Positions 851-17,945 of a stretch of DNA of 36,445 nucleotides are shown here, piece after piece. The notes beneath the pieces are model-generated. The model was not told the origin of the DNA. It searched no databases and saw only the letters and a program-made list of their open reading frames with translations. The stretch's first letter is position 1; the number at the start of each line of letters is the position of its first letter. Origin of the DNA: Solirubrobacteraceae bacterium (GTDB lineage Bacteria > Actinomycetota > Thermoleophilia > Solirubrobacterales > Solirubrobacteraceae); the NCBI GenBank assembly GCA_030690545.1, contig JAUYGN010000008.1, positions 1-36,445 on the forward strand, in the 5' to 3' direction. Both the position numbers and the translations under genes were made by a program.

Positions 851-859
851 AGATCAATC

Positions 860-879: not shown

Positions 880-887
880 AGTTAACT

Positions 888-1817: not shown

Positions 1818-1841
1818 AGTGGCCGGAAGCGCTACAAGATC
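1772..1841. repeat. 70-bp MITE-like element with terminal inverted repeats, copy 1
   Basis: The ends are inverted copies: GATCTTGTTGCG at the left and CGCTACAAGATC at the right, with a second matched block (CGGCCA/TGGCCG) inside each end. The interior contains a hairpin, GCGAAAACGGCC paired with GGCCGGTTTCGC around AAATGT. A related copy, at least its left half, starts at 16502. It has no coding capacity and is probably a non-autonomous element or a structured intergenic repeat. Confidence 0.65.
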
Positions 1842-1979
1842 GCCGAAAGGCGTGACGCACGCCCCCGGGCGGACCGGGTCGGGCGAGGCGCGGAACAATC
1901 CTTCAAGGTGACACGGACCCGGGCCCGGATCCGAGCTCCGGCACCTGACCCGCCCGGACCGCAAACGAGGGAGGACCAC

Positions 1980-2111
1980 GTGGCGAACATCGCGGAGACC
2001 ACGAACTCGGAGCACGCGGCTCAGCGTGAGAGGCCCGCCAGCCCCAAAGGCGCGGCCGCCTTCGCCGAGAAGCGTCCGGCGGACTTCGCCCAAAACGTCC
2101 ACCGGCACTGA
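1980..2111 (+). CDS. Possible small leader protein (43 aa) before the acyl-CoA dehydrogenase
   Basis: GTG at 1980 has a good Shine-Dalgarno (GAGGGAGG, about 6 nt upstream) and gives a hydrophilic 43-residue product beginning MANIAETTNSEHAAQ and ending NVHRH before TGA at 2109-2111. The stop lies 13 nt before the ATG of the dehydrogenase at 2125, which has no ribosome-binding site of its own, so translational coupling is plausible. No family is recognised. It could also be a remnant of a longer gene. Confidence 0.4.
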   Translation: MANIAETTNSEHAAQRERPASPKGAAAFAEKRPADFAQNVHRH

Positions 2112-2124
2112 CGGGCGCGACGAC

Positions 2125-3270: not shown

Positions 3271-3344
3271 GTGCCACTAGAGAGCCGAGTAATGCTAGAA
3301 ACGACGCCCTTCTATGCTGATCCCAACTAGCGGAAGGACCAATC

Positions 3345-4544: not shown

Positions 4545-5464
4545 TGGCGGCTGACCCGGGGGCGGCCGAGTCGCCACCGGCGGACCGCGACGTCTTCCCC
4601 AGCGTCCTAGTCATCGGAGCCGGGACCATGGGCGCCCAGATCGCCATGGTCGTAGCCCTGTCCGGTCGCACTGTCTGCGTGACTGACATCGCCGCCGACG
4701 CACTGGACCGAGCCCGCGCAGAGCTCGACAGCCGGATGCGAGCCCGCGTGGACAAAGGGCGCCTGACCCAAGAGCAACTCGACGACGCGTTCGCCCGGCT
4801 AACCACCACGACCGACCTAGCCGCCGCCGCCAGCGACGTCGACCTGGTCATCGAGGCCGTCGTCGAAAGGCTCGAAGCCAAACGCGCGCTCTTCGCCGAA
4901 CTGGACTCGCTGTGCCCGACAGCCACAGTCTTCGCGAGCAACTCGTCGAGCTTCATGCCGTCGCAGATGGCGGACGCCCGGCCCGACCGGTTCATCAACC
5001 TGCACTTCTTCAACCCCGCCCTGGTGATGCGCTGCGTCGAAGTGATTCGAGCCCCGTCCACCGCGCAGCAAACCGTCGACGCCGCCGTGGCGTTCGTGCG
5101 CGACATCGGCAAAGAGCCCGTCCTTCTGGACAAGGAGATCCCCGGGTTCATCGCCAACCGGATACTCAACGCCGTCCGCGACGAGGCGGTCTCGCTGATG
5201 GAGAACGGCGTCGCGTCCGTCAGCCAGATAGACCTGGCCTGCCGAACCGCCTTGGGATATCCGATGGGGCCTTTCGAGCTGATGGACCTCACCGGGATCG
5301 ACATCGGTTACTTGATCAAGAAGGCGCGCTTCGAGGCCACCGGCGACCCGGCTGACGCGCCCGCCCGCAGCATGAGCGAGCTCGTGGCGGCCGGTCACTT
5401 GGGACGCAAGACAGGCCGTGGCTGGTACATGTACGAAAACGGCGAGAAGGTGGGAGAAGCCTGA
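4541..5464 (+). CDS. 3-hydroxyacyl-CoA dehydrogenase (3-hydroxybutyryl-CoA dehydrogenase type)
   Basis: NAD-dependent oxidation of 3-hydroxyacyl-CoA to 3-oxoacyl-CoA, the step before the thiolase encoded just upstream. The 307-residue product has a Rossmann GAGTMGAQIA near residue 27, the catalytic His in NLHFFNPALVMRCVEV, the IPGFIANRI hinge, and the C-terminal helical domain with GYPMGPFELMDLTGID ending in GRKTGRGWYMY. The length is that of the single-domain HBD/PaaH type, not the FadB fusion. ATG at 4541 (followed by a second ATG) overlaps the thiolase stop by 4 nt, and its TGA (5462-5464) shares a base with the next ATG. No enoyl-CoA hydratase gene lies in this operon, so that step must be supplied elsewhere. 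Confidence 0.93.
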   Translation: MMAADPGAAESPPADRDVFPSVLVIGAGTMGAQIAMVVALSGRTVCVTDIAADALDRARAELDSRMRARVDKGRLTQEQLDDAFARLTTTTDLAAAASDVDLVIEAVVERLEAKRALFAELDSLCPTATVFASNSSSFMPSQMADARPDRFINLHFFNPALVMRCVEVIRAPSTAQQTVDAAVAFVRDIGKEPVLLDKEIPGFIANRILNAVRDEAVSLMENGVASVSQIDLACRTALGYPMGPFELMDLTGIDIGYLIKKARFEATGDPADAPARSMSELVAAGHLGRKTGRGWYMYENGEKVGEA

Positions 5465-6615
5465 TGGACCTGACCCTGACCGACGAGCAGCTCAGCTTCC
5501 AGAAGCTGGCGCGGGAGTTCCTGGACCGGGAGGTCGTGCCTCACCGCATGGAGTGGGACCGCGCCGAATCCGTCGACCCGGCGATCGTGCCCAAGCTAGC
5601 CGAGCTGGGGTTCTTCGGCCTGACGATCCCCGAGGAATACGGCGGCGTCGCTGGCGACTACATCACCTACTGCCTCGGCATGGAGGAACTCGGCCGCGCC
5701 GACTCTTCCGTGCGCGGCATCGTGTCGGTGTCGATGGGCCTGGTCGGAAAGCCGATCCTCGGCTTCGGCACCGAGGAGCAGAAGCAGGACTGGCTGCGGC
5801 GAATCGCCACCGGCACGGCGACGGGATGCTTCGCTTTGACCGAGCCGGACATAGGATCCGACGCCAGCAACCTGACGACCAAGGCCGTGCGGCAGGGCGA
5901 CGAATACGTCATCGACGGGCAGAAGATCTTCATCACGAACGGCACTTGGGCCGACGTGTGCGTGGTGTTCGCCCGCACCGGCGGCCCCGGCCCGAAGGGC
6001 ATCTCCGCGTTCCTCGTTCCCACCGACACCCCCGGGTTCGAGCGCCGCGAGATCAAGGGCAAGCTCGGCCTGCGGGGACAGGCGACGTGCGAGATATTCC
6101 TGACCGGAGTGCGGGTCCCGGCGTCGGCGATGCTCGGCCAGGAGGGCCAAGGCTTCAAGATCGCGATGTACTCCCTGGACCGTGGCAGGGTTTCGATGGC
6201 AGCCGGATGTGTTGGGATCATCTGCGGCTGCCTCGACGCTGTCGTCGCGTACTCCAAGGAGCGTCACCAGTTCGGCCGGCCGTTGGCGTCGTTCCAGATG
6301 ATCCAGGACATGATCGCCGAGATGTCCGTCGACGCCGACGCTGCCCGGCTGCTCGCCTGGCGCGCGGCGGATCTGCTGCAACGCGGCGAGCCGTTCGGCG
6401 TCGAGGCGTCGAAGGCGAAGTACTTCGCGTCGGAAGCGGCCGTTCGCGCTTCGAATCTGGCGATCCAGGCGTTCGGCGGCTACGGCTACATCGACGAGTA
6501 CCCGGTGGCGAAGTTCATGCGCGACGCACGGGTCACGACACTGTACGAAGGCACGTCGCAGATCCAGAAGCTGCTCATCGGGCGCGCCGAGACCGGCGTC
6601 AGCGCTTTCGTGTGA
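5464..6615 (+). CDS. Acyl-CoA dehydrogenase (short/branched-chain type)
   Basis: FAD enzyme of 383 residues with family blocks in order: LTDEQLSFQKLAREF, IPEEYGG, ALTEPDIGSDAS near residue 125, KIFITNG, KLGLRGQATCEIFL, RHQFGRPLASFQMIQ, FGGYGYIDEYPV, and the catalytic Glu in LYEGTSQIQKLLIG near residue 362. This is the standard SCAD/BCAD layout. Its start overlaps the upstream stop (TGATG), so it is translated as part of the same operon. Lying next to glutaryl-CoA dehydrogenase and the AliB-like enzyme, it may act on a medium dicarboxylyl-CoA or short branched substrate. That is inference from context only. Confidence 0.92.
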   Translation: MDLTLTDEQLSFQKLAREFLDREVVPHRMEWDRAESVDPAIVPKLAELGFFGLTIPEEYGGVAGDYITYCLGMEELGRADSSVRGIVSVSMGLVGKPILGFGTEEQKQDWLRRIATGTATGCFALTEPDIGSDASNLTTKAVRQGDEYVIDGQKIFITNGTWADVCVVFARTGGPGPKGISAFLVPTDTPGFERREIKGKLGLRGQATCEIFLTGVRVPASAMLGQEGQGFKIAMYSLDRGRVSMAAGCVGIICGCLDAVVAYSKERHQFGRPLASFQMIQDMIAEMSVDADAARLLAWRAADLLQRGEPFGVEASKAKYFASEAAVRASNLAIQAFGGYGYIDEYPVAKFMRDARVTTLYEGTSQIQKLLIGRAETGVSAFV

Positions 6616-6643
6616 AAGCGGCCCTCGTCTGAAAGGACAACCC

Positions 6644-7816
6644 ATGGCAACGCAGCAGACCCCGCTCGGGCTCCTCGCGACCGACAGCCTGCTCAGCTCC
6701 GAGGACCGCGACATGCGCGACACCGTGCGCAAGGCCCTCGACCGCTCGGTGCGGCCGCACCTCGCCGAGTGGTTCGAGGCTGGCTCGGTGCCTGCCCGCG
6801 AGCTGATGCGTCAGTTCGGAGATCTCGGCCTGCTCGGGATGCACCTGGACGGCTACGGCTGCGCTGGCACGAGTGCCACCGCGTACGGCCTGGCCTGCAT
6901 GGAGCTTGAGGCCGCCGACTCCGGCATCCGCTCGCTGGTGTCGGTGCAGGGATCTCTTGCGATGTTCGCGATCTGGCGCTGGGGCAGCGAGGACCAGAAA
7001 CTTCAGTGGCTGCCGCAGATGGCCGCCGGGGAGCTAATCGGCTGTTTCGGCCTGACCGAGCCCGACTTCGGTTCCAACCCCGGCGGGATGCGCACGTTCG
7101 CCCGGCGCGACGGCGACGACTGGGTGCTGAACGGCACGAAGATGTGGATCACCAACGGGTCGGTCGCCGACGTCGCCATCGTGTGGGCGGCGACCGACGA
7201 CGGGATCCGGGGCTTCATCGTGCCGACGGATGCGCCGGGGTTCTCCGCGCCGGGCATCAAGGGCAAGCTGTCATTGCGCGCGTCGGTGACGTCGGAGCTG
7301 GTCTTCGATGACGTCCGGCTGCCTTCGTCCGCCCTATTGCCCGAGGCGAGGGGACTGTCGGGGCCGCTGTCGTGTCTGAACGAGGCGCGGTTCGGGATCG
7401 CTTTCGGCGCTTTGGGCGCCGCCCGGGATTGCCTCGAGGTGACGATCGCGTACGTGGGCGACAGGCAGATGTTCGACCGGCCTCTGGCGGCGTACCAGAT
7501 CACTCAGACCAAACTCGCCGACATGACGGTCGAGCTGGGCAAGGGGATGCTCCTGGCGTTGCACCTCGGTCGGCTCAAGGACGCTCACGCTGTGCGGCCG
7601 GAGCAGATCAGCATCGGCAAGCTCAACAACACGCGTGAGGCGATCGCGATCGCGCGGGAATGCCGCACGCTGCTCGGCGCCAACGGGATCACGCTGGCTT
7701 ACTCGGTCATGCGGCACGCCAACAACCTGGAGTCGGTGCTGACGTATGAGGGCACATCCGAGGTTCACCAGCTCGTCATCGGCCAGGCCCTGACGGGGAT
7801 CTCCGCCTTCCGCTAG
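6644..7816 (+). CDS. gcdH: Glutaryl-CoA dehydrogenase
   Basis: Oxidative decarboxylation of glutaryl-CoA to crotonyl-CoA and CO2. The 390-residue protein carries GCDH hallmarks: RSLVSVQGSLAMFAI near residue 93 (the Arg in this segment binds the substrate gamma-carboxylate in characterised enzymes), EPDFGSNPGGMRT, KLSLRASVTSELVFDDVRLP, and the C-terminus TYEGTSEVHQLVIGQALTG. The ATG is preceded by AAAGGA (6631-6636) and lies 28 nt after the previous gene, so it probably belongs to the operon. Crotonyl-CoA is hydrated and then oxidised and cleaved by enzymes like the two upstream. The call is strong by motif; whether the pathway is for lysine, tryptophan, aromatic or alicyclic acids is open. 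Confidence 0.88.
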   Translation: MATQQTPLGLLATDSLLSSEDRDMRDTVRKALDRSVRPHLAEWFEAGSVPARELMRQFGDLGLLGMHLDGYGCAGTSATAYGLACMELEAADSGIRSLVSVQGSLAMFAIWRWGSEDQKLQWLPQMAAGELIGCFGLTEPDFGSNPGGMRTFARRDGDDWVLNGTKMWITNGSVADVAIVWAATDDGIRGFIVPTDAPGFSAPGIKGKLSLRASVTSELVFDDVRLPSSALLPEARGLSGPLSCLNEARFGIAFGALGAARDCLEVTIAYVGDRQMFDRPLAAYQITQTKLADMTVELGKGMLLALHLGRLKDAHAVRPEQISIGKLNNTREAIAIARECRTLLGANGITLAYSVMRHANNLESVLTYEGTSEVHQLVIGQALTGISAFR

Positions 7817-7891
7817 CGGTTGCGCCCGCTCCCGCCGGACGCGCGGATCTCTCGTGTGCAGCGTGTTGTCTCCGATGAGCGCGCCAGTGGG

Positions 7892-7897
7892 TAATCA
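7892..7897 (+). promoter_or_regulatory. Probable -10 element for leaderless pafB-like transcript
   Basis: TAATCA lies 6 nt before the ATG at 7904, the spacing expected when transcription starts at or next to the start codon. No Shine-Dalgarno is present between them. Confidence 0.45.
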
Positions 7898-7903
7898 TGG
7901 GGC

Positions 7904-9037
7904 ATGCGCGAGGACCGGCACGGTGCCCGGCGGAATGCCGGTAGCCCTGAGCCGATCGATCGGATGATCGCGATCTCGATAGCGTTGACGCACGCTGGCG
8001 CTGCCGGCAAAGCTGCCCTCGAGCTCGCCGACATAGTCGGGTACGCCGGTGCGCATGAGAGCCGCAGGGAGATGCTGGCTCGTGACATCCGAGGCCTGCG
8101 CAGGTCGGGCCTTGAGATCAGAAACGCCGCTGCTCCGGGAGAGGAATCGCGCTGGGTGCTAGTCCCCGGTGACAGCCGAGTGCGCGTCGCGTTCACGGCG
8201 AGTCAGCGTTCGGAGTTGCGTCGCGCGGCGCTGCTGGCTGACGGGCGGGAGTTGGCCTCGCAGATCACGCCTGGGGGCCCCCCCGCCCGGCGCCTAGCGC
8301 CGGGGAGGGGGAGGGGTACCGATGAGGATCAGGGCTTGAGAATTCGCGTCAGACCATTGCCGCCGGAGCTAGAGCAAGTCCAGCGAGCCGTGATCGACAA
8401 GTGCCTGCTCGAGTTCTGGTACAACGGCAGCCCCCGCAGCGTCGATCCGTACACGATGATGTTCACCGCCGGGGAATGGGCGGTGCACGGCCTCGAGCGC
8501 GGGACCGGGCTCGCCAAGACCTTCACCGTTACCCGGATGCAGCGCATATCGATCGGCAATCCTGGTTCCGCGGTCGTTCCGGCCGACCCCGTGCGGCCGT
8601 CGGTGGATCCGCTGACGTGGCACCAGGACGTGCCGATCGAGGCTGAGCTGGTCTGTCCCGCCGAGTTCGCCGCCGACGTCGCGGCCATGCTGAACGCCGT
8701 AGCCGTCCCCGCCGCCGCCGCCGCCGCGGAAACGGCCGCTAACGAAAGAAGCGACAGTTACGGTCAGAAACGGGCGTTGCAACGGGCGCATCCGTACCTA
8801 ACGGGCGCGTTTGACGTTAGCGGCCGTTTCTGCGAAGCCGGACCGCCTCCCGCCGCCGCCGCCCTCGATGCCATGGGCGGCGAGGAAGATGTGGTGGCAA
8901 TGCGAGCGGTGGTCACCAACCGGTGGCTGTTCCTCGCCCGGCTGATGGAACTCGGTGAGCGCGTCCGCTTGGTCGGCCCGGAGGCCCTGCGCTCCGAACT
9001 CCGCGAGCGCCTGACTGCCGTGGCGGCGCCCTCATGA
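7904..9037 (+). CDS. WYL-domain transcriptional regulator, PafB-like, with two in-frame palindromic insertions
   Basis: Likely half of a PafBC-type heteromeric activator, which in mycobacteria switches on the LexA-independent DNA-damage response. The N-terminus has a winged-helix region (about residues 18-70, with SRREMLARDIRGLRRSG). The WYL core lies near residues 165-195 (KCLLEFWYNGSPRSVDPYTM), and the C-terminal WCX-like region ends RLVGPEALRSELRERL. Two stretches do not fit the family: a Gly/Pro/Arg segment near residues 123-138 encoded by a GC hairpin (8271-8316), and about 36 residues near 275-311 encoded by a 109-bp repeat (8727-8836) also found at 14872-14981. Both keep the frame. The start follows a leaderless-type -10 box. 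The stop overlaps the next ATG by 4 nt. No Pup-proteasome genes are nearby. Confidence 0.75.
   Translation: MREDRHGARRNAGSPEPIDRMIAISIALTHAGAAGKAALELADIVGYAGAHESRREMLARDIRGLRRSGLEIRNAAAPGEESRWVLVPGDSRVRVAFTASQRSELRRAALLADGRELASQITPGGPPARRLAPGRGRGTDEDQGLRIRVRPLPPELEQVQRAVIDKCLLEFWYNGSPRSVDPYTMMFTAGEWAVHGLERGTGLAKTFTVTRMQRISIGNPGSAVVPADPVRPSVDPLTWHQDVPIEAELVCPAEFAADVAAMLNAVAVPAAAAAAETAANERSDSYGQKRALQRAHPYLTGAFDVSGRFCEAGPPPAAAALDAMGGEEDVVAMRAVVTNRWLFLARLMELGERVRLVGPEALRSELRERLTAVAAPS
8271..8316. repeat. GC-rich hairpin inserted in the pafB-like gene
   Basis: CCCGGCGC (8286-8293) and GCGCCGGG (8297-8304) pair around CTA, flanked by a C-run on the left and G-runs on the right that extend the stem. 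It encodes a low-complexity Gly-Pro-Arg stretch between the winged-helix part and the WYL domain. The frame stays open. It looks like a palindromic repeat that has invaded a linker. Confidence 0.5.
8727..8836. repeat. 109-bp inverted-repeat element inside pafB-like gene, copy A
   Basis: Terminal inverted repeats CGGAAACGGCCGCTAACG (left) and CGTTAGCGGCCGTTTCTG (right) are almost perfect. The core GAAACGGGCGTTGCAACGGG is identical in copy B at 14872-14981, and the two copies align over their full length with a single gap. Here the element is translated as part of the regulator without a stop codon. Confidence 0.75.
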
Positions 9038-10020
9038 GCCCCGGGGAGGCGCGAGCTGCGAGCGCGGTTGCGATGATCCCTCGAGTACTGGCTCTCCTCA
9101 GCGCCTACCCGGACGGGCTTCCCCTGGCGACTGTCGCCCGACAGCTCGGACTTGACTCAGACAAGCTGCGGCGCGACATCCTCCGGTTCTACGCCGCCGA
9201 CATTCAGGCCGACTCGATGCTCGGGCTTGGCCGACCGGAAGTGCTCGAGTTCCTGTCCGCCACCGGCGAGGATGCGGATCCGGGGGACGCGGCCTTCATC
9301 CGCGTGGTCTGCGATCAACCCGCTGCCGAGCTCGGGGTCGAGTACATCCCGGCTGACCGGCTGGCCATCTTGTACGCGGCCGCTGCCAGCCTTGCCCAGA
9401 CCGAACCCGACAACGCTGACCTGCTCGGCGCTGTCGAGACTCTGGCGTCGACGTTCCTGTCAGGCCTCGAAATCAGCGTGACCCAATCCGCTGACACGAC
9501 ACCAGCCCTGATCCGCCAAGCGATGGACGACCGGCGCGCTGTGCGGATCAAGTACTCGCGCGCCTGGAGGCCCGGCGTGAGCAACCGGGTAGTCCATCCA
9601 TACGCGCTGCATCACACTCCGCGCGGATGGGAACTCGACGCGGGCCCGCTGGTCGGAGGGCACGCTCGCACGTACATAGTCAGCAGGATTCGGGACGCTG
9701 AAGTCCTCGCCGAGTCCTTCGAACGCCCCGACGGCGTGGACTCGGTCATCGGAGCGGACCGGCGCGCGCGAGACGTTCAGATGAACCTGCCGCAGGGGAC
9801 TCGGTGGGTCGCTGACAGATTCGCCGAGCGCGTTGACGTAGCCGAATCCGACCGGGATGACCTGACTGTGAGGGCCGAGTTCCTGCCGCCGGTGGAGGAA
9901 CGCGTCGGCTTGGTGCTGGCGATCGCGGGGCCTGAGGCGTTCGTGATCGAGCCGGATGCCCTGGCCGATGCTGGCGCGATCATGGCCGCTCGACTCCTTC
10001 GCCACCACGGCCTGGACTAG
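9034..10020 (+). CDS. WYL-domain transcriptional regulator, PafC-like
   Basis: Partner of the upstream PafB-like protein; PafB and PafC act together as a DNA-binding regulator in mycobacteria. The 328-residue product shows an N-terminal winged helix (ARQLGLDSDKLRRDILRF near residues 40-58), a middle helical region with LAILYAAAASLAQTEP, and a WYL domain near residues 168-215 (DDRRAVRIKYSRAWRPG, then NRVVHPYALHHTPRGWELDAG). A C-terminal WCX-like part ends GPEAFVIEPDALADAGAI. ATG at 9034 overlaps the previous stop (ATGA), indicating coupled translation. Assignment to PafC rests on the gene pair and domain order; other paired WYL regulators are possible. Confidence 0.75.
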   Translation: MSPGEARAASAVAMIPRVLALLSAYPDGLPLATVARQLGLDSDKLRRDILRFYAADIQADSMLGLGRPEVLEFLSATGEDADPGDAAFIRVVCDQPAAELGVEYIPADRLAILYAAAASLAQTEPDNADLLGAVETLASTFLSGLEISVTQSADTTPALIRQAMDDRRAVRIKYSRAWRPGVSNRVVHPYALHHTPRGWELDAGPLVGGHARTYIVSRIRDAEVLAESFERPDGVDSVIGADRRARDVQMNLPQGTRWVADRFAERVDVAESDRDDLTVRAEFLPPVEERVGLVLAIAGPEAFVIEPDALADAGAIMAARLLRHHGLD

Positions 10021-10076
10021 CCCGAGCCCCGGCGTCCGGTCCGGAGTCCGCGATCTGCGCAAACGAGCGGGCCCGC

Positions 10077-10517
10077 TCAGTGCGCGAGCCCCGCCTGGAC
10101 CTCCTCGACGTTGCTCGCTGAGCCAGCGCTGCTCGACTTCTCGTCGGCGAGCAACTGATGCACGCGCTGGAAGGAAACGCCCATGGCGAATCCGATATCG
10201 CGCATCGACCAGCCTTGGCTGTGCAGGTGAACGGCCGCCGAGCGCAGTTGGGCGCTCGCCTCGCGCGCCTGTTCACCGGCCGAACGCCGGAGTTCACGCC
10301 CCCGAGCGATCGCTTCCTCGACTTCGCGCGGAACGGCTGGGCTAACTGTCACATCCACTGACGCCGACGGCACGTTGGCGACGAAGGCGATCGCTTCTCT
10401 GTGGATCTTGGCGGCTTGGCCGAGGTTGCTCACTTGAGAGATAGCGCCGGGGAACTCGACGCATTGGACTACCCACCAGCGACCGTCCTTGGTCGCTATG
10501 GCGTTGTACCTGGTCAT
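10077..10517 (-). CDS. HicB-like antitoxin with C-terminal helix-turn-helix
   Basis: Antitoxin of a type II HicAB-like system. The N-terminal half has the HicB fold signature: RYNAIATKDGRWWVVQCVEFPGA then the regularly spaced QAAKIHREAIAFV. The C-terminal half has an HTH (GWSMRDIGFAMGVSFQRVHQLL, near residues 102-123) for autoregulation. I prefer ATG at 10517 (MTRYNAIA), which overlaps the toxin stop as ATGA and follows GGTGGAG. A GTG at 10526 is the alternative. It is co-transcribed behind the toxin on the minus strand and converges on the PafC-like gene. Confidence 0.75.
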   Translation of the reverse strand: MTRYNAIATKDGRWWVVQCVEFPGAISQVSNLGQAAKIHREAIAFVANVPSASVDVTVSPAVPREVEEAIARGRELRRSAGEQAREASAQLRSAAVHLHSQGWSMRDIGFAMGVSFQRVHQLLADEKSSSAGSASNVEEVQAGLAH

Positions 10518-10708
10518 CGTCTCCACCAGCCTTTTCCCAGCGCTGGCTCCAGTTGCTTGAACAGTGCGAGCGCTGCCCGGTCGGCGGTTTCGGTGTGGCG
10601 GCCGATCGTGGTTCGTACCGAACCCACTCGAAGGCCCAGATGGTTCGTCCTCTGGAACTCCTCGTACGGCACGCCGGCTTCCCTTGCCGCTTGCTTGATC
10701 CTCTTCAA
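10514..10708 (-). CDS. HicA-like toxin (small mRNA-interferase candidate)
   Basis: A 64-residue basic product upstream of and overlapping the HicB-like gene. The central strand-His pattern (RTNHLGLRVGSVRTTIGRH) and the helix ending in FKQLEPALGKGWWR match actinobacterial HicA-like toxins. In HicA the His follows a Gly-Ser; here it is in TNH and again in GRH. The TTG start at 10708 follows TAAGG. An in-frame extension upstream (KTRKVLKRIKQ) exists, but no better start codon is seen before a stop near 10739. Toxin-first order is normal for hicAB. Confidence 0.65.
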   Translation of the reverse strand: MKRIKQAAREAGVPYEEFQRTNHLGLRVGSVRTTIGRHTETADRAALALFKQLEPALGKGWWRR

Positions 10709-10954
10709 GACCTTACGCGTCTTCAGCGTCGACGTCTACCCCCCTCGACATGGAGTGTCAATGTGCGCTAGACACGATGCGTGCTGGATTCGTGCTTGGC
10801 CCAATTGCGGCCAGCCCCGTCGGTAGCTGCGGCTGGGTTGGCAGATCCCGCCAGGCTCGAGCCGTCCCCCGCCCACAAGCCCGGATGGCGTGTCGCTGGA
10901 GCCGCCCTGAGGCCCCCTCAGCGAAGATGGGGAACCGGCGGCGATGAGGTGAAG

Positions 10955-12712
10955 ATGGATCCTGGGCGCTTGAGGTCTCTGCCGCTGACCCGCGTGGCGC
11001 CCTACGCCGCGACGGCTCTCGCCACCCTCGGCGTCGCGTTGTGGTTCTACCAGCCCTGGAGTATGACGGGGAGCGACGTGTTCTTCGGTGGCGAGGACAT
11101 CATCGCGCTGCAGGCAAACGTCGCCGCCGCCGGGCAGGTGGGACCCTTCGGGGCCGATCCCCATCTGGCCTGGCCGACCGGCTACGACCTGTGGAGCTTC
11201 CCGCAACTCGGGCTCGGCATCCTCACCGCAGCATGGGTTCTCACTGGACCACTCGGAGTCGGGTCAGGCGCAGCCGCGCTGATCATCATGATCGGGGCGC
11301 TTGTCTCCACGAGCGTGGCGTCACTGTTCTTCATCCGCTCGGTCATCGGCCGACGGCTTCCGTTCCTGGCAGCAGTGCTCGCGGCGGCCATAGGGCTCTC
11401 GCCGTTCTTCATGGGCAAGGTCGGCCACCTGAACGTCGCCGTGTTCTTCCTCGTGCCCATCACGCTCGGTGCCGTCATCCGTCTGCGCGGCAGGGGAGTC
11501 AGGGCCGCCTGCGCCGCTGCTGCCGCGCTCGCCGTCGCCTCCGCGGTGTCGCCGCTCTGGTGGGTTGTCGTGGTGTGCCTGGTACTGGGCGTAGTGGCTG
11601 TGGGCACGGCGCTGCGCCGATCTTGGTCTCGCCTGCTGGGAGTCGGGATCGTCCTGGCTGGCGTCGGCGCGGGATTCGTCTTCCAGACTCTGCTGTTCTG
11701 GCGGGCCCGCGTTGACGGAGCCCCTCTCGGCAGAGGTGTGTGGGGATCGAACGAGTGGGGTGGACGCCTGTCGGACCTGACGATCTCGTCGCCGTTCCTC
11801 AACCAGTTCTACCCCGACGAGATGTACGGCTCGCTCGTCGAAGGATCCAGCCAGGAACAAAAGCCGCTGGGTCTTGTCGCGGCGACCGCCGCTCTGGCCG
11901 TCGCGCTTGTACTACTCAAGGGAATGCCAAGGCGGGTCGCGCTCCCCGACGGCGGCTCCATCCGCACCGGGATGCTGGCCCTGGTCAGCACCGTTGTCTT
12001 GCTGTTCTTCCTCGCGGGCGGGTTGGGGAACGCGCAGGCAGCCTTCGCCGTGGGGCTGGGGGGCGCGTCGCCAGCCCGGGTCTGGTCCCGGATGACCATC
12101 GTGCTGGCGGTCGCCGGTATGGCCTGGTGCCTCGTCTACTTCGCCCGCTGGGCTCGCGACACCAGACGCGGCACCGGCACCGTGAAGGTCGCCTCCCTGG
12201 GCATCGGCATCGTCGTGTCCGTCGTGATGGTGTTGGAGCTGACAAGCACGGAGCCGCCCCGGGCAATCCAGTCAGCGTCGCTTTCGGAGTACCCGGCCGT
12301 CGAGTTCCTCCGGTCTCGCACCGAGCCGTGTCCCATCGCGCAGATTCCCCAGGACGGGGCGCCCGTCGTCAGAGTGCCGCGCGGCCCCAAGACCCCGGAA
12401 AGCCTGTTCTACTACCGTGGGTATTACTCGTACCTCCTGGCCCCCGAGTACTTCTGGAGCATCGGGTCGTGGGTTCCGGACAAGCCGACGGTCATGAATT
12501 CGATCGGCGCGACGCTGGACGCGGATGGGATGACGAGGCTGAGGTCGGCCGGCGCTTGCGCGGTGATGTACGACAAGCTCCTGGCCCGCGTTTCGCGGAA
12601 GAAGCGTCTGGGTCTTGAGGGTTCCAAGGTCTCCGGGCTGCCTCAGCCCGACTTCACTTCGGACCGGTACGACGTTTATCTGCTCGCTGGGGGCGGCTCT
12701 ACGGCCTCCTGA
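10955..12712 (+). CDS. Polytopic membrane protein, GT-C-type glycosyltransferase-like
   Basis: 585 residues with about ten to twelve hydrophobic segments, starting with PYAATALATLGVALWFY, and a C-terminal extracytoplasmic part of about 150 residues (from SLSEYPAVEFLRS on). A first-loop acidic segment (SDVFFGGED) and the motif GHLNVAVFFLVPITLG resemble large prokaryotic membrane glycosyltransferase-like proteins that use polyprenyl-phosphate sugars. The ATG at 10955 is chosen because GAGGT lies 4-5 nt upstream; the frame is open further upstream to 10781 but without membrane character. A GtrB-like gene follows, which makes the lipid-linked donor such enzymes need. Specific substrate unknown. 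Confidence 0.7.
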   Translation: MDPGRLRSLPLTRVAPYAATALATLGVALWFYQPWSMTGSDVFFGGEDIIALQANVAAAGQVGPFGADPHLAWPTGYDLWSFPQLGLGILTAAWVLTGPLGVGSGAAALIIMIGALVSTSVASLFFIRSVIGRRLPFLAAVLAAAIGLSPFFMGKVGHLNVAVFFLVPITLGAVIRLRGRGVRAACAAAAALAVASAVSPLWWVVVVCLVLGVVAVGTALRRSWSRLLGVGIVLAGVGAGFVFQTLLFWRARVDGAPLGRGVWGSNEWGGRLSDLTISSPFLNQFYPDEMYGSLVEGSSQEQKPLGLVAATAALAVALVLLKGMPRRVALPDGGSIRTGMLALVSTVVLLFFLAGGLGNAQAAFAVGLGGASPARVWSRMTIVLAVAGMAWCLVYFARWARDTRRGTGTVKVASLGIGIVVSVVMVLELTSTEPPRAIQSASLSEYPAVEFLRSRTEPCPIAQIPQDGAPVVRVPRGPKTPESLFYYRGYYSYLLAPEYFWSIGSWVPDKPTVMNSIGATLDADGMTRLRSAGACAVMYDKLLARVSRKKRLGLEGSKVSGLPQPDFTSDRYDVYLLAGGGSTAS

Positions 12713-12776
12713 CGATCGGCCCGCGCCACGCCCGGTCCCCACCGCAGCGCGCAGGCGTGCCTACCATGTCCGGGTG

Positions 12777-13856
12777 ATGGCCAACCCATTCGGGCACGGG
12801 GGAGAGCACGGAATGATCCCCACTCTGCCGGGTTCGCTCAGCGTTGTCGTGCCTTGCTTCAACGAGGAATCCTCAGTCGAGGAGCTTGTGGCAAGGATCG
12901 GTAGAGCCGCTTCGGGACTGGTGGCTGACTTCGAGGTCCTAATCATCGATGACGGGAGCACAGACGGGACTCTTCGGCAGGCTCGGTTGCTCGCCGATCT
13001 GGATGCTCGCGTTCGCTACGTCTCGCTGAGCCGGAACTTCGGTAAGGAGGGGGCGATCTACGCCGGTTTGCTCCACGCCCGGGGCGAATCGGTCTTGCTG
13101 ATGGACGGGGACCTTCAGCACCCTCCCGAAGTGATCCGGATGCTTCTCGAGAAGCGGGCTGAAACCGGTGCCGACCAGGTGATCGCGCGGCGGACTCGCG
13201 CGGGCGATCCGCCTATTCGCACTCTGCTGACGCGGATTTGCTACGGGCTGATGAACCGGGCGGTTGATGTACGCCTCGCCGATGGCGAAGGTGATTTCAG
13301 GCTGCTGTCGCGCCGCGCCGTCGCGGCCGTTCTTGAACTCTCCGAGGCGAACCGGTTCTCGAAGGGCCTCTTCGCTTGGATCGGCTTCCCGAGCGCGACC
13401 GTGGACTACGAGAACGTCTCCAGGGCCCACGGGCGGAGCCGTTGGTCGACTCGGCACTTGATCAACTACGGAATCGACGGCGTGATGTCGTTCAACAGCC
13501 GACCGCTGAGGACGATGATCCACCTGGGCTACGTGATCACAATCTTGTCCTTGCTCTATGTGGCCTGGCTCGTGATGAACGCGATCGTGTTCGGGGTCTC
13601 TGCTCCCGGGTACATCACCGTCATCGCCGCGGTCGTCGGATTCGGGGGCATCCAGCTGCTGAGTCTCGGGGTCATCGGTGAGTACGTGGGGCGCATGTAC
13701 GTCGAGACCAAGAACCGCCCGAAGTACTTCATCGCGGAGACAGGCGGATCGGGGCTGGGCGGATTCCGGCTGGCGGAGCAGCTGTCGGCAGGGAATGAAG
13801 TTGACGTCCGCCGGGTCGAGCGCCAGATCTCCCCGCAGTCGCCGCGAGACGCGTGA
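12777..13856 (+). CDS. Polyprenyl-phosphate glycosyltransferase, GtrB/ArnC-like (GT2)
   Basis: Transfers a sugar from a nucleotide donor to undecaprenyl (polyprenyl) phosphate on the cytoplasmic face. GT2 domain: SVVVPCFNEES near the N-terminus, IIDDGSTDGT, the donor/metal motif LLMDGDLQHPP, and the GtrB-type segment SLSRNFGKEGAIYAGL. Two C-terminal membrane hairpins follow (YVITILSLLYVAWLVMNAI and FGGIQLLSLGVIGEYVGRMY), ending ETKNRPKYFI. ATG 12777 lies 9 nt after TACCAT (GTG 12774 lies 6 nt after), fitting leaderless initiation. ATG 12813 with GGGGAG upstream is an alternative that removes 12 residues. It probably supplies the GT-C-like protein encoded just upstream. Confidence 0.88.
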   Translation: MANPFGHGGEHGMIPTLPGSLSVVVPCFNEESSVEELVARIGRAASGLVADFEVLIIDDGSTDGTLRQARLLADLDARVRYVSLSRNFGKEGAIYAGLLHARGESVLLMDGDLQHPPEVIRMLLEKRAETGADQVIARRTRAGDPPIRTLLTRICYGLMNRAVDVRLADGEGDFRLLSRRAVAAVLELSEANRFSKGLFAWIGFPSATVDYENVSRAHGRSRWSTRHLINYGIDGVMSFNSRPLRTMIHLGYVITILSLLYVAWLVMNAIVFGVSAPGYITVIAAVVGFGGIQLLSLGVIGEYVGRMYVETKNRPKYFIAETGGSGLGGFRLAEQLSAGNEVDVRRVERQISPQSPRDA

Positions 13857-13942
13857 AGCGCGACCTGTTGAGAGCCATTTCGGGCTGACCGCACCCGCCC
13901 TGCGGCGAACACTCACAGTCAGACGAACCGCCGGAGGAACTC

Positions 13943-14752
13943 CTAGGTCGCGGTCGCAATCACACGCAGCATCGCTCGCGAAGCTCTCCTCGACCCGGCT
14001 GCGTTGAGGTGTCCCTCGTCGCTGGCATAGCCGCCGTACAGGGCGAAGTAGCGCTTGCCGCCGCGATGTCCCACGACCCGGGTTCCGTTGGGGCGGGTCG
14101 ACTCCACCTTGGCCAGGTCGAAGAGCCGCCCAGTTCCCGCGTAGGCCCTGCGGATCAAAGCGTTGTACTTCTGCCGGACAACGTTGCTGGCTGGATCGTT
14201 TGTGGTCAGAGGCGCGGTCACGTGAAGGAAGGCCACGCCCGGGTACTCGCTAGACAGGGCCTTGATCGTCCTGCGGTACTTCTTGAAGACGGACTTGGGG
14301 TGAGATCCGGGGCCGAAGTCGACGTAACACAGCTTCATGAACGCGACCCGGACGTCATCTCCCGCGCCCGCCCGAATCTTCCCCGCGAAGTCGTTGATCT
14401 TCGAGTTGGGGGCTCCGTTGGATCCGATGCCCTCGTGGGCGAAGACTCCACCCGCCGGCAAGCCCGCGCTCCCTTCGAACTGGTTCGGCGCTGCTAGCCC
14501 GCGCGCCGCGTAGAGCGCATTCATGCCGTCGATGATGTTCCAGCCGACCGACTGGTGCCCGAAGAAGACGCGAGAGTTCCGGGCCTTCCGCAGCTGGCCC
14601 TTCGTTGGCCCGGCGGAGGCAGCGCTGGCGGTCACAGTCGGGTTCAGTGAAGCGCCTGGGGCTATCGCCTGCGCGGGCGAGAGCAGAGTTACGGCCGCAA
14701 CGGCAACTCCCGTCGCCGAGGCGATTGCGACCGCGAATCCGCGTCTACGCAT
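13943..14752 (-). CDS. Secreted SGNH-hydrolase-like protein
   Basis: A 269-residue exported protein. The N-terminus MRRRGFAVAIASATGV...LLSPAQA is a signal peptide with a predicted cleavage after AQA. Conserved-looking blocks are FFGHQSVGWNIIDG, a central Cys-Tyr-Val-Asp-Phe-Gly-Pro, the strand FLHVTAPLT, and a C-terminal SDEGHLNAAGSRRAS. The last has the Asp-x-x-His spacing of the SGNH/GDSL catalytic pair. A clear N-terminal GDS motif is not evident, so catalysis is uncertain. I chose ATG 14752 because GAGAGG lies 7 nt upstream; an ATG 30 nt earlier has none. It converges on the glycosyltransferase gene and may modify a cell-surface glycan. Confidence 0.6.
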   Translation of the reverse strand: MRRRGFAVAIASATGVAVAAVTLLSPAQAIAPGASLNPTVTASAASAGPTKGQLRKARNSRVFFGHQSVGWNIIDGMNALYAARGLAAPNQFEGSAGLPAGGVFAHEGIGSNGAPNSKINDFAGKIRAGAGDDVRVAFMKLCYVDFGPGSHPKSVFKKYRRTIKALSSEYPGVAFLHVTAPLTTNDPASNVVRQKYNALIRRAYAGTGRLFDLAKVESTRPNGTRVVGHRGGKRYFALYGGYASDEGHLNAAGSRRASRAMLRVIATAT

Positions 14753-14871
14753 CTTGCTACCTCTCGTCGGGGTTACTGCCATGTATCGATCGTTTCACGC
14801 GTCGAATTGAGCCAACGCGACGGTGGGTTTCGGCCTTGCTTTGATGGATCCCGGCCGCCCCGCCTCCCGCG

Positions 14872-14981
14872 CGGAAGCGGCCGTTCCGCACAAACGCGAC
14901 GCTTTCGCCAAGAAACGGGCGTTGCAACGGGTGTTTCTGAGGGTCTCCGGGTGCGTCTGTCGGGAGCGGCCGTTTCTTCCA
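14872..14981. repeat. 109-bp inverted-repeat element, copy B (intergenic)
   Basis: Same family as the element inside the pafB-like gene: the core GAAACGGGCGTTGCAACGGG is identical and the ends GCGGAAGCGGCCGTT and GAGCGGCCGTTTCTTCC are imperfect inverted repeats. Here it lies between the SGNH-like gene and the nuclease-ACBP gene. The rest of the 282-bp gap (14753-15034) shows nothing I can name. Confidence 0.75.
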
Positions 14982-15034
14982 ACGCTGCGGGGACAGGGCC
15001 GCTGGGGCTGCCGGGGCGCGAGTGCCCTGGGCGG

Positions 15035-15733
15035 TCAGAGCCCGGACACGACGCTGATGTACTGACTCTTCGCATCCTCACTCGTGAGGCCCTTGAGCGT
15101 CGACCACGCCTCATGCTTGGCCCGGCCCACGAAATCGGTGAACCCTGGCTTCTTGCCAGCCACGTCACCAACTGTCGCCTGCTTGTACAGGGCGTACAGC
15201 TTGAGTTTGATGTCGTTGCCAGGGTCGGTCGTGAGGGTCTTCACTTTCTCCAGGGCGCTCGCGAACTCAGCGCCCGGCCCGTCCGAAGGGGTGTTGGTGA
15301 ACTCAGCGCCCGGCCCGTCCGACGTCGGTCGCCGACTTGATACTGCATGATCGCGTAGCAGTTGCGTGGCCAGCTGATTGGATGGCACGACGTCGCCGGC
15401 ATAGTCGAATTTGAACAGACAGACGCCAGCATGGTCGGCCCATTTGACGGCCTCTGGAGAGTACCCTGCCAACGCGAAGAACAGGGGCTTCTTGTTGAGG
15501 GGTGCGGCCACGCCGTACAGTTCCTGAATCTTTGGACGGCCGACTGGCTTCACTTGGGCCTTGACCTGGGCAACTGCTGAAGATGACTGCACGTCGACTC
15601 CGGCGTCCTTGCCTTTTGGGGTGCATACCGCATCGGCGAAGCCGTGGCTGAGCATCCAATCCCTGGTAGCGAGTTCCGCGTCGCGTGGGGTGCGGATGAT
15701 GCGGCCCACCTGACTATCGGCTTCGATATCCAT
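15035..15733 (-). CDS. Mrr-type restriction endonuclease domain fused to an acyl-CoA-binding protein domain
   Basis: 232 residues. Residues about 15-115 are an Mrr_cat-like PD-(D/E)xK nuclease fold: TPRDAELATRDWMLSHGF, the acidic GKDAGVDVQSS (Asp43/Asp47), then AQVKAQVKPVGRPKIQELYG with a Gln-x-Lys (Gln56-Lys58) in place of (D/E)xK, as in many Mrr proteins. Residues about 155-232 are a bacterial acyl-CoA-binding protein: FASALEKVKTLTTDPGND, LYALYKQATVGDV, PGFTDFVGRAKHEAW, LKGLTSEDAKSQYI. The ligand residues known in ACBP (Tyr, Lys of YKQA, the Lys of RAKHEAW, Tyr225) are all present. The linker contains SDGPGAEF twice, from an in-frame 36-bp duplication. The start lies 7 nt after a TAGCGT box (leaderless). 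Both domains look intact. Function unknown; an acyl-CoA-sensing nuclease is my inference. Confidence 0.8.
   Translation of the reverse strand: MDIEADSQVGRIIRTPRDAELATRDWMLSHGFADAVCTPKGKDAGVDVQSSSAVAQVKAQVKPVGRPKIQELYGVAAPLNKKPLFFALAGYSPEAVKWADHAGVCLFKFDYAGDVVPSNQLATQLLRDHAVSSRRPTSDGPGAEFTNTPSDGPGAEFASALEKVKTLTTDPGNDIKLKLYALYKQATVGDVAGKKPGFTDFVGRAKHEAWSTLKGLTSEDAKSQYISVVSGL
15263..15322. repeat. Direct repeat in the linker of the nuclease-ACBP gene
   Basis: GAACTCAGCGCCCGGCCCGT followed by CCGA occurs at 15263-15286 and again at 15299-15322. The period is 36 bp, giving a 12-residue in-frame duplication that repeats SDGPGAEF between the two domains. Confidence 0.9.
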
Positions 15734-15740
15734 GGGCCGA

Positions 15741-15746
15741 ACGCTA
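15741..15746 (-). promoter_or_regulatory. Probable -10 element for leaderless nuclease-ACBP transcript
   Basis: On the minus strand TAGCGT stands 7 nt before the ATG at 15733, with no Shine-Dalgarno between. This matches the TANNNT spacing seen before several other genes of the window and supports the start chosen. Confidence 0.4.
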
Positions 15747-15904
15747 TCGACAGGTGGACAGCGTTGCCGGATGAGTGAGCCAACTCAGCGACCTCCGTCG
15801 GCGCGTCGCTCGGTCGCTGCCCGGCGCGCCTTCGCGGCCAGCCACTACCTCTGCGCCACGATAGGCGGTGCCGAAGGACCAGTGGGCGACACGGAGGGAC
15901 AAGC

Positions 15905-16486
15905 GTGGCGACTGCTACGACGATGCGACCCCTGAGGTCATCGAGGTGGGTCTCGGTCGGGGCCGTACCGGTTCTTCTTGGATTGCTGTGTCTGGTCATC
16001 GGCGTGGTTCTCGCGATGACTGCTATTGACCGCGCGACGGTCCTCGGCTTTGACGCTGGCTATCTACGGCATGTGCTCGCGCTGGACGCTCCAGTTCAGG
16101 CGGACCTCGTGGAGTTGGGCCCGGCCAGCGACACAGTGGGGAATCTGGCCTTCTTGTTGGCGTTGGCGTTCACGTGTGTCGCCGCGACCCTGTTGCTTGT
16201 TGCCAGTGGTTTCTGGATGACGTCAGCCCGGACGCGTCACCCTGAGGCAGCGGGCCGCATCGCCGCGATAGGGCTTTGGCTGGCCCTGATCCTCGCGGCT
16301 CTGGCGGTGCTTCCGGTCAACGGCGGCTGGAGGGAGGCCGGACTCGGGTCCCCGGCGGATCTAGGAGAAGCGGCTGTGGAGATCCTGCCGGTCGCAGTGC
16401 TTTCCCTGTTCGGGCTCTTGCTGCTGCAGTTCTCGGTGCAACAGTGGGGTGCCCGAATGCGCGCGGCGATGCGTGGCCGCACTTAG
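15905..16486 (+). CDS. Four-helix integral membrane protein of unknown function
   Basis: 193 residues with four hydrophobic segments: VGAVPVLLGLLCLVIGVVLAM (about 18-38), NLAFLLALAFTCVAATLLLVA (about 79-99), IAAIGLWLALILAALAVL (about 119-136) and ILPVAVLSLFGLLLLQF (about 160-176). There is a basic C-terminus (MRAAMRGRT). The GTG start at 15905 follows GGAGGGA, a good ribosome-binding site. No family recognised. It is divergent from the nuclease-ACBP gene across a 171-bp gap, so the two may share a regulatory region. Confidence 0.65.
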   Translation: MATATTMRPLRSSRWVSVGAVPVLLGLLCLVIGVVLAMTAIDRATVLGFDAGYLRHVLALDAPVQADLVELGPASDTVGNLAFLLALAFTCVAATLLLVASGFWMTSARTRHPEAAGRIAAIGLWLALILAALAVLPVNGGWREAGLGSPADLGEAAVEILPVAVLSLFGLLLLQFSVQQWGARMRAAMRGRT

Positions 16487-16501
16487 CCCCGCATCTGGGG
16501 T

Positions 16502-16547
16502 GATCTTGTAGCGAATCCGGCCAGATATGGCCGCTTTCGGTGTTTGT
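16502..16547. repeat. MITE-like element, copy 2 (partial)
   Basis: GATCTTGTAGCG, then CGGCCAGATATGGCC and CTTTCG, match the left half of the 70-bp element at 1772-1841 (GATCTTGTTGCG, CGGCCAAATGTGGCC, GTTTCG). The matching right end is not seen; the sequence runs into a short tandem array at 16548. Confidence 0.6.
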
Positions 16548-16588
16548 GCGAGCCAGGCCCCGCGAGCCAGGCCCCGCGAGCCAGGCCC
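16548..16588. repeat. Three tandem copies of a 14-bp unit
   Basis: GCGAGCCAGGCCCC occurs at 16548-16561 and 16562-16575, and 13 of its 14 bases recur at 16576-16588. It directly abuts the partial MITE-like copy, which suggests slippage or damage at the element's right side. Confidence 0.85.
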
Positions 16589-16695
16589 GAGTGTGGCGAG
16601 TACCTCATTGACCGCGACCACACCGGCGGCTGGATACTTAGCGGGCACGTCCGTGGACTGACGCGGGGCCACGGAATCCGCTGAGAGGACTGACC

Positions 16696-17895
16696 ATGGC
16701 GCGACTAGCGCAAACTGAAGGACTCACCGAGATCCAGACCGACATCTTGGCTGCTGTCCACGATTTCGTGGACAAGGAGATCATTCCGAACGCCAGCCGC
16801 CTTGAGCACGCGGACGAGTACCCGACCGACATCGTGGAAGGGCTCAAGGAAATTGGCGTGTTCGGGCTCGTCATCCCAGAGGAATACGGCGGCCTGGGGG
16901 AGTCGATCTTGACCTACGCGCTCGTGGTGGAGGAGATAGCCCGCGGCTGGATGAGCGTGTCCGGCGTGATCAACACGCACTTCATCGTCGTCCACATGAT
17001 CATGAACCACGGCACCGAGGAGCAGAAGCAGAAGTACTTGCCGCGCCTGGCGACCGGAGAGCTCAGAGGCGCCTTCTCGATGTCAGAGCCCGACTGTGGC
17101 TCGGATGTCGCCGCGATCCAGACCAAGGCGGTGCGTGAAGGGGACGAGTTCGTGCTCAACGGCACGAAGATGTGGGTTACAAACGGCGGGTCGTCGACCC
17201 TGGTGGCCGTGCTCGCTCTGACGGACGGCGAAGCCGACGAGGGAGCCAGCGTCTATAAGAGGATGACTACGTTCCTGATCGAGAAGCCCCAGGGCTTCGG
17301 TGAGGTCGCTCCTGGCCTGACGATCCCGGGCAAGATCGAGAAGATGGGGTACAAGGGCGTCGACACCACCGAGCTGATCATGACCGACTTCCGCCTCGCC
17401 GCTGACGAGGTTCTCGGCGGCGAGCCGGGCAAGGGCTTCTACCAGATGATGGACGGCGTGGAGGTCGGACGCGTCAACGTGGCCGCGCGGGCTTGCGGCG
17501 TCGCGGCGCGCGCGTTCGAGCTGGGCATCGATTACGCCCAGCAGCGCCACGCGTTCGGCAAGCCCATCGCTCAGCACCAAGCGGTCATGTTCCGCCTGGC
17601 CGAGATGGCGACGAAAGTGGAGGCCGCCCACGCGATGATGACCAAGGCGGCGCGCAAGAAGGACTCCGGGCAGCGCAACGACCTGGAAGCCGGGATGGCT
17701 AAGTACCTGGCCAGCGAGTCCTGCAAAGAGGTCGTGGAGGACTCATTCCGCATCCACGGCGGCTACGGCTACTCGAAGGAGTACGAGATCGAGCGCCTGT
17801 ACCGCGACGCGCCGCTGCTGCTGATCGGCGAGGGCACGTCGGAGATCCAGCGGATGGTGATCGGCCGCAAGCTGCTGGCGCGCAACAAGATCTGA
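16696..17895 (+). CDS. Acyl-CoA dehydrogenase
   Basis: 399-residue FAD acyl-CoA dehydrogenase with IPEEYGGLGES near residue 57, the middle-domain SMSEPDCGSDVAAIQ, KMWVTNG, KIEKMGYKGVDTTELI, RHAFGKPIAQHQAV, HGGYGYSKEYEIERLYRD, and the catalytic-loop Glu in LIGEGTSEIQRMVIG near residue 387. ATG at 16696 follows GAGAGGA. The middle region is longer than usual (an insertion around EADEGASVYKRM). Codon style looks like the first part of the window at the 5' end and like the second part at the 3' end, so the gene may span a junction. A perfect-stem terminator follows. Substrate unknown. Confidence 0.9.
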   Translation: MARLAQTEGLTEIQTDILAAVHDFVDKEIIPNASRLEHADEYPTDIVEGLKEIGVFGLVIPEEYGGLGESILTYALVVEEIARGWMSVSGVINTHFIVVHMIMNHGTEEQKQKYLPRLATGELRGAFSMSEPDCGSDVAAIQTKAVREGDEFVLNGTKMWVTNGGSSTLVAVLALTDGEADEGASVYKRMTTFLIEKPQGFGEVAPGLTIPGKIEKMGYKGVDTTELIMTDFRLAADEVLGGEPGKGFYQMMDGVEVGRVNVAARACGVAARAFELGIDYAQQRHAFGKPIAQHQAVMFRLAEMATKVEAAHAMMTKAARKKDSGQRNDLEAGMAKYLASESCKEVVEDSFRIHGGYGYSKEYEIERLYRDAPLLLIGEGTSEIQRMVIGRKLLARNKI

Positions 17896-17898
17896 TCG

Positions 17899-17945
17899 TC
17901 GCGGTGCGCGTTTCGGAGCTTGAGCTGCCGAAACGCGCACCGCGA
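17899..17945 (+). terminator. Intrinsic-type hairpin after acyl-CoA dehydrogenase
   Basis: TCGCGGTGCGCGTTTCGG (17899-17916) is perfectly complementary to CCGAAACGCGCACCGCGA (17928-17945), an 18-bp stem around an 11-nt loop that can pair further (AGCT/AGCT). It starts 3 nt after the stop codon. No T-run follows, as is common in high-GC actinobacteria. Confidence 0.8.

What the first reader, a model, noticed from the sequence alone, without database searches (positions are those of the whole stretch)
15035..15733. Mrr-type nuclease domain fused to an acyl-CoA-binding protein
Seen: one uninterrupted 232-codon frame encodes an Mrr_cat-like PD-(D/E)xK domain (GKDAGVDV and AQVKAQVKP) and then an ACBP domain with all its usual ligand residues (YKQA, RAKHEAW, Tyr225). 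Known: Mrr-type domains cleave DNA, often modified DNA; ACBP binds long-chain acyl-CoA. I know of no described nuclease-ACBP fusion. Inference: acyl-CoA level may gate the nuclease (a metabolic or phage-triggered sensor), or ACBP may tether it near membranes.
Basis: partly seen in the sequence, partly recalled or inferred. Interest (0 to 1): 0.88.

Follow-up and report, generated by a model that had tools for sequence, protein, structure and literature searches.

The report
DNA-cutting enzyme fused to acyl-CoA binder
One bacterial gene joins a restriction-type DNA-cutting domain to a complete fat-metabolite-binding domain, a pairing seen in no other genome searched here; close relatives of the cutter mostly carry a membrane anchor instead, so the new domain may steer or switch the enzyme, but no activity has been tested.

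Summary
One intact 232-aa frame (15035-15733, minus strand) carries Mrr_cat (E 2.4e-8) and ACBP (E 8.4e-28), both above Pfam cut-off. Catalytic-type E20, D47, Q56, K58 and all seven published acyl-CoA contacts are present. The linker has no internal start codon, so the ACBP can only be made as part of the fusion.

The gene lies in a foreign-composition island (about 1-17.9 kb) holding acyl-CoA dehydrogenases, a thiolase and a 3-hydroxyacyl-CoA dehydrogenase, with no recognised defence genes. The ACBP groups with solo ACBPs of Phycicoccus-type actinomycetes (98/98). The nuclease belongs to an actinobacterial, often plasmid-borne Mrr_cat group. By hydropathy 16 of 22 intact relatives carry transmembrane segments; the ACBP variant has none. 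No second fusion turned up in any scan, so it is a singleton from one draft contig.

Best reading: a modular Mrr-type DNase whose membrane-anchor position is taken by a lipid-ligand domain that places or gates it near acyl-CoA or membrane. Localisation is slightly preferred over allosteric gating; neither was tested. New domain architecture. A review reports no extended ACBDs in prokaryotes (PMC7057175); this gene and a Variovorax hydrolase-ACBP contradict that.

The parts
15035..15733 (-). Mrr_cat-ACBP fusion gene, 232 aa, ATG start (a GTG at residue 9 is an alternative start)
   Evidence: in-frame stop upstream at 15785-15787
15413..15688 (-). Mrr_cat nuclease domain, residues 16-107
   Evidence: Pfam PF04471, 34.5 bits against cut-off 21; model fold matches 1y88, EndoMS, MspJI, Can2
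15674..15676 (-). E20, helix-1 acidic residue, invariant in 18 of 18
15593..15595 (-). D47, catalytic-type Asp of GKDAGVD, invariant in 18 of 18
15560..15568 (-). Q56-V57-K58, QxK catalytic-type motif (Q in 17 of 18, K in 18 of 18)
15272..15349 (-). linker, residues 129-154; no ATG, GTG, TTG or CTG codon in frame between residues 126 and 160
15263..15286 (-). 24-bp direct repeat, copy next to the ACBP (SDGPGAEF)
15299..15322 (-). 24-bp direct repeat, copy next to the nuclease
15047..15271 (-). ACBP domain, residues 155-229, all seven ligand residues present
   Evidence: Pfam PF00887, 96.8 bits; TM 0.92 to 2cb8
1..17900 (.). foreign-composition island holding the gene; right edge approximate, left edge is the start of the window
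   Evidence: 2-kb tetranucleotide distance mostly above the host 95% value of 0.311 up to about 18 kb, below it beyond; 20-kb correlations 0.40-0.57 for 1-18 kb against 0.83-0.91 for 18-36 kb
8..850 (+). ISL3-family transposase (frame begins at the window edge)
   Evidence: PF01610 4.6e-47
2026..3270 (+). acyl-CoA dehydrogenase
3345..4544 (+). thiolase
   Evidence: PF00108/PF02803
4496..5464 (+). 3-hydroxyacyl-CoA dehydrogenase
   Evidence: PF02737/PF00725
5464..6615 (+). acyl-CoA dehydrogenase
6644..7816 (+). acyl-CoA dehydrogenase
16696..17895 (+). acyl-CoA dehydrogenase, xenologue; native-type copy is on contig C94

Best explanation
A real single-polypeptide enzyme of the actinobacterial Mrr_cat group. 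SHOWN: the nuclease core with its active-site residues and a complete ACBP are read as one frame, inside an apparently horizontally acquired island rich in beta-oxidation-type genes; the ACBP cannot start on its own; the ACBP comes from the actinomycete solo-ACBP lineage; most relatives of the nuclease carry membrane segments beside or before the core and this one does not. INFERRED: the core cuts DNA, probably incoming DNA; the ACBP binds long-chain acyl-CoA; the ACBP replaces the membrane anchor, holding the nuclease at acyl-CoA-rich or membrane surfaces where foreign DNA enters, much as membrane placement provides selectivity in SNIPE. Binding of acyl-CoA may in addition change activity.
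For: Domains above cut-off; full conservation of key columns; confident ACBP model; nuclease fold matches to PD-(D/E)xK enzymes; no internal start in the linker; 16 of 22 intact relatives with predicted membrane segments; relatives mostly on actinobacterial plasmids and two on viral contigs; island context with acyl-CoA enzymes; precedent that nuclease placement at the membrane discriminates phage DNA, and that homologues without membrane segments carry other membrane-binding domains (PMC13190303).
Against: No biochemical or genetic data. Only one instance known, so conservation of the fusion itself cannot be shown. Membrane segments in relatives were called by a simple hydropathy scan, and in some the long open frame may overstate the true gene. 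ACBPs are mostly soluble carriers, so membrane tethering by ACBP is not assured. No defence genes adjoin.
Confidence: 0.4

Rival explanations
1. Acyl-CoA-gated nuclease: ACBP is an allosteric sensor, and binding (or loss) of acyl-CoA switches DNA cleavage on or off, coupling lipid metabolism or membrane damage to DNA destruction.
For: All seven ligand residues kept; nuclease fold close to ligand-gated CARF nucleases Can2, Card1 and Cdn1; gene lies among acyl-CoA-metabolism genes.
Against: No interdomain contact could be assessed: the linker and ACBP are low-confidence in the full-length model. I know of no established allosteric output of this sort for an ACBP. The fold similarity is to the nuclease domain only.
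Confidence: 0.28
2. Recent accidental fusion: a solo ACBP gene of the acyl-CoA island became joined to a neighbouring Mrr-type gene. One half does its old job (acyl-CoA buffering or DNA cutting) and the other is a passenger.
For: Singleton in all scans; exact 24-bp repeat at the junction; beta-oxidation surroundings.
Against: Both halves keep every strongly conserved column, and the ACBP end branch is long (0.37 against median 0.074), so neither half looks decayed; but time since fusion is unknown.
Confidence: 0.25
3. Assembly artefact: two genes joined by mistake at the short repeat, or the island half of the contig belongs to another organism.
For: Draft genome of 149 contigs; 24-bp repeat exactly at the junction; composition changes at about 17.9 kb.
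Against: The composition change lies more than 2 kb outside the gene and both halves of the gene share the island's low GC (0.60 and 0.62). A perfect in-frame join with no stop is unlikely for a misjoin, and 24 bp is shorter than the k-mers usually used for final contigs (general knowledge). A mis-assigned island would change the host, not the fusion.
Confidence: 0.07

Closest known systems
Mrr_cat (PF04471) 'restriction endonucleases' of Rhodococcus, Curtobacterium, Streptomyces and Prescottella plasmids
   Same: Same catalytic core at 36-53% identity with E20, D47, Q56, K58
   Different: They carry membrane segments, helical, zinc-ribbon or second Mrr-like parts; none found has an ACBP
E. 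coli Mrr (type IV restriction enzyme)
   Same: Pfam catalytic-domain family
   Different: No N-terminal winged-helix domain found by Pfam here; ACBP at the C-terminus
Solo ACBPs of Intrasporangiaceae/Phycicoccus
   Same: ACBP up to 70% identical (L147), grouped at 98/98 support
   Different: All those read are stand-alone genes starting at their own Met
Extended eukaryotic ACBD proteins such as ACBD2/ECI2
   Same: ACBP joined to an enzyme
   Different: Enoyl-CoA isomerase rather than a nuclease; PMC7057175 reports no extended forms in prokaryotes
CARF nucleases Can2, Card1, Cdn1
   Same: Ligand-binding domain plus a PD-(D/E)xK-type nuclease with a similar nuclease fold (Z 6.5-9.4)
   Different: Ligand domain is CARF, not ACBP; ligand is cyclic oligoadenylate
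SNIPE (PMC13190303)
   Same: Nuclease whose variable extra domains give membrane placement, including lipid-binding PH-like domains in homologues without membrane segments
   Different: GIY-YIG nuclease with DUF4041; not homologous

Membership tests
Mrr_cat nuclease (PF04471) | Profile match above the curated cut-off | tested here: met
   34.5 bits against 21
Mrr_cat nuclease (PF04471) | Active-site E, D, QxK residues | tested here: met
   E20, D47, Q56, K58; invariant or nearly so across 18 homologues
Mrr_cat nuclease (PF04471) | Restriction-endonuclease-like fold | tested here: met
   VIA Z 10.6 to 1y88, 9.3 EndoMS, 8.4 MspJI on a model region of pLDDT about 70-90; Foldseek E did not pass 0.001, so moderate strength
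Mrr_cat nuclease (PF04471) | DNA cleavage | not testable with these tools
   needs an enzyme assay
E. coli-type Mrr | N-terminal winged-helix DNA-binding domain | tested here: not met
   Pfam finds only Mrr_cat and ACBP; about 15 residues precede the Mrr_cat match
ACBP (PF00887) | Profile match and four-helix fold | tested here: met
   96.8 bits; TM 0.92, rmsd 0.6 to 2cb8
ACBP (PF00887) | Ligand-contact residues F5, L25, Y28, Y31, K32, K54, Y73 | tested here: met
   all seven present (alignment; residue list from PMC7057175)
ACBP (PF00887) | Binds long-chain acyl-CoA | not testable with these tools
   needs a binding assay
Known anti-phage defence system | Match to a described system or defence-gene neighbourhood | tested here: inconclusive
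   PDC-S02 4e-5 and mREase_IV 0.043, both partial; only WYL-type regulators among the neighbours scanned
CARF-type ligand-gated nuclease | CARF sensor domain | tested here: not met
   no CARF in the Pfam scan; nuclease fold alone is similar
SNIPE | GIY-YIG nuclease and DUF4041 | tested here: not met
   neither found by Pfam

The most novel reading that the evidence does not exclude
The protein is a metabolite-gated DNA nuclease: free long-chain acyl-CoA, or its sudden rise or fall when phage or stress disturbs the membrane, directly controls DNA cleavage. That would be a class of nuclease effector controlled by a primary lipid metabolite rather than by a dedicated nucleotide messenger.
Probability: 0.22. 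Interest if true: 0.85.

Novelty: new variant of a known kind. Interest (0 to 1): 0.55.

Why it matters
It joins two well-known but unrelated activities, DNA cutting and acyl-CoA binding, in one small protein that can be expressed and assayed directly. If acyl-CoA affects the nuclease or its location, it would link lipid state to DNA restriction in bacteria. It also shows that prokaryotes do have extended ACBP proteins, contrary to a published statement, and that Mrr-type cores in actinobacteria are modular, with membrane segments usually in the position the ACBP takes here.

Tried and rejected
None found. Considered that the ACBP might be a separate gene with an internal start: rejected, no start codon in the linker. 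Considered that the Curtobacterium plasmid hit covering 84% of the query might be a fusion: it is not, Pfam sees only Mrr_cat and the rest is helical. Alignments A4 and A5 misaligned the nuclease rows and were not used for folding; A6 and A8 were used. Foldseek on the full model gave nothing under E 0.001. No paper was found on an Mrr-ACBP fusion. One search used an alignment with two edited ACBP rows (A2) only to widen the patterns; no biological claim rests on those rows. The viral structure library was not searched.

Full report
CHECKING THE OBSERVATION. The frame 15035-15733 on the minus strand is open from an ATG for 232 codons. Pfam assigns Mrr_cat to residues 16-107 and ACBP to residues 155-229, each above its curated cut-off. 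ACBP is also recognised against solved ACBP sequences at E 1.4e-18. The whole genome of 3.53 Mb in 149 contigs holds a single ACBP and a single Mrr_cat match, both in this gene.

ACTIVE-SITE AND LIGAND RESIDUES. Across 18 homologues of the nuclease core, E20, D43, D47 and K58 are invariant and Q56 is present in 17. The seven ACBP residues listed in a review as contacts for acyl-CoA (PMC7057175) map onto F157, L177, Y180, Y183, K184, K206 and Y225, all present, using the alignment. All 14 strongly conserved Mrr columns and all 26 strongly conserved ACBP columns are kept. There is no usable start codon in the linker, so the ACBP is made only as part of the fusion.

STRUCTURE. A thin-alignment AlphaFold2 model of the whole protein gives confidence of about 70-90 over the nuclease and low confidence over linker and ACBP. 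The nuclease part aligns best to AF1548 (1y88, Z 10.6), and to Can2, EndoMS, Cdn1 and MspJI at Z 8.0-9.4; Foldseek alone gave no match below 0.001, so this is moderate evidence. The ACBP modelled alone has mean pLDDT 88 and superposes on liganded human ACBP at 0.6 A. The arrangement of the two domains relative to each other was not resolved.

WHERE THE GENE LIES. The first roughly 18 kb of the window differ in composition from the rest of the genome and the remainder does not. The right half contains genes collinear with congeneric genomes, including a succinyl-CoA-ligase-like gene at 91-94% identity. The left half contains an ISL3 transposase, four acyl-CoA dehydrogenases, a thiolase and a 3-hydroxyacyl-CoA dehydrogenase. 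The acyl-CoA dehydrogenase at 16696-17895 is only about 57-63% identical to the lineage's own copies, whereas the gene on contig C94 is 81-85% identical to those of the genus and keeps their downstream order. I read the left half as a horizontally acquired island; a chimeric contig cannot be fully excluded, but the compositional step is more than 2 kb outside the fusion gene.

ORIGIN OF THE TWO HALVES. ACBP was found in one of 396 sampled genomes of the phylum, this one, but in 51 of 150 genomes of the Phycicoccus family. In a tree of 104 ACBPs the window sequence falls in a 24-row set, made up otherwise of actinomycete ACBPs and one long-branched human sequence, with 98/98 support; the nearest row is 70% identical. 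With 77 columns the tree is coarse. Every ACBP of that family whose frame I read begins with its own methionine as a stand-alone protein. The nuclease half belongs to a group annotated 'restriction endonuclease' on plasmids of Rhodococcus, Curtobacterium, Streptomyces, Prescottella and Cellulosimicrobium, with two members on viral contigs.

MODULARITY OF THE NUCLEASE GROUP. Of 22 intact relatives, 16 carry at least one strongly hydrophobic 19-residue stretch by a Kyte-Doolittle scan, usually a pair after the core, sometimes before it. Others carry helical regions, zinc-ribbon-like parts or a second degenerate Mrr-like copy. The window protein has no such stretch and ends in the ACBP. This is the main reason to think of the ACBP as taking the place of an anchor. 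The hydropathy scan is crude and some upstream open frames may not be coding.

HOW IT MAY WORK. Step 1, DNA cleavage by the Mrr_cat core: inferred from family and residues. Step 2, binding of long-chain acyl-CoA by the ACBP: inferred from residues and fold. Step 3, the ACBP places the nuclease at membranes or acyl-CoA-rich sites, or changes its activity: inferred, with placement slightly preferred because of the relatives. SNIPE shows that placing a nuclease at the membrane can restrict cutting to incoming phage DNA, and some SNIPE homologues without membrane segments carry lipid-binding domains instead (PMC13190303). CARF nucleases show that small-molecule gating of a similar nuclease fold is possible. 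Neither is a relative by its defining features.

COMPARISON WITH WHAT IS KNOWN. By profile, residues and fold this is an Mrr_cat protein and an ACBP protein. It lacks the winged-helix domain of E. coli Mrr. A review reports no extended ACBD proteins among prokaryotes (PMC7057175). This gene is one, and a Variovorax plasmid protein with an alpha/beta hydrolase and a C-terminal ACBP is another. The nuclease-ACBP pairing was not found in any other genome searched here nor in the papers searched.

VERDICT. Observation confirmed; interpretation partly supported; new variant of a known kind; singleton; function untested. Interest 0.55, rising if further members or an acyl-CoA effect are found.

Noticed in passing
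L130-L137 (Mrr-like hits): A set of large-genome actinobacterial proteins carries an Mrr-like domain in which the D and QxK residues are gone (for example AQVDPTV), joined to an N-terminal cysteine-rich region; probably a non-catalytic DNA-binding or scaffold derivative.
   Followed up: no
L010:3881-4255 (Streptomyces sp. NBC_00040 plasmid): A plasmid-borne ACBP with a signal-peptide-like N-terminus that groups with an animal ACBP (2fdq) at 100/98 support instead of with bacterial ACBPs; may be an exported, eukaryote-derived ACBP.
   Followed up: partly
L013:1753-3222 (Variovorax boronicumulans plasmid): A 489-aa protein with an N-terminal alpha/beta hydrolase, a middle region and a C-terminal ACBP: another prokaryotic extended ACBP.
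   Followed up: partly
L009:3917-4159 (Rhodococcus jostii RHA1 plasmid pRHL1): An ACBP-like stretch covering only part of the domain, apparently continued in another frame; looks like a broken ACBP gene.
   Followed up: no
L170:2492-3418 (Rhodococcus sp. GA1 plasmid): An intact Mrr_cat core followed by a second, degenerate Mrr-like copy, on a plasmid between two HNH endonuclease genes.
   Followed up: no
window 7904-10020: Two adjacent, slightly overlapping WYL-domain regulator genes inside the foreign island, of a kind often found next to defence or DNA-damage genes; target unknown.
   Followed up: partly
window 15263-15322: A 24-bp exact direct repeat with 36-bp spacing sits at the domain junction and encodes SDGPGAEF twice; possibly a scar of the fusion or slippage.
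   Followed up: partly
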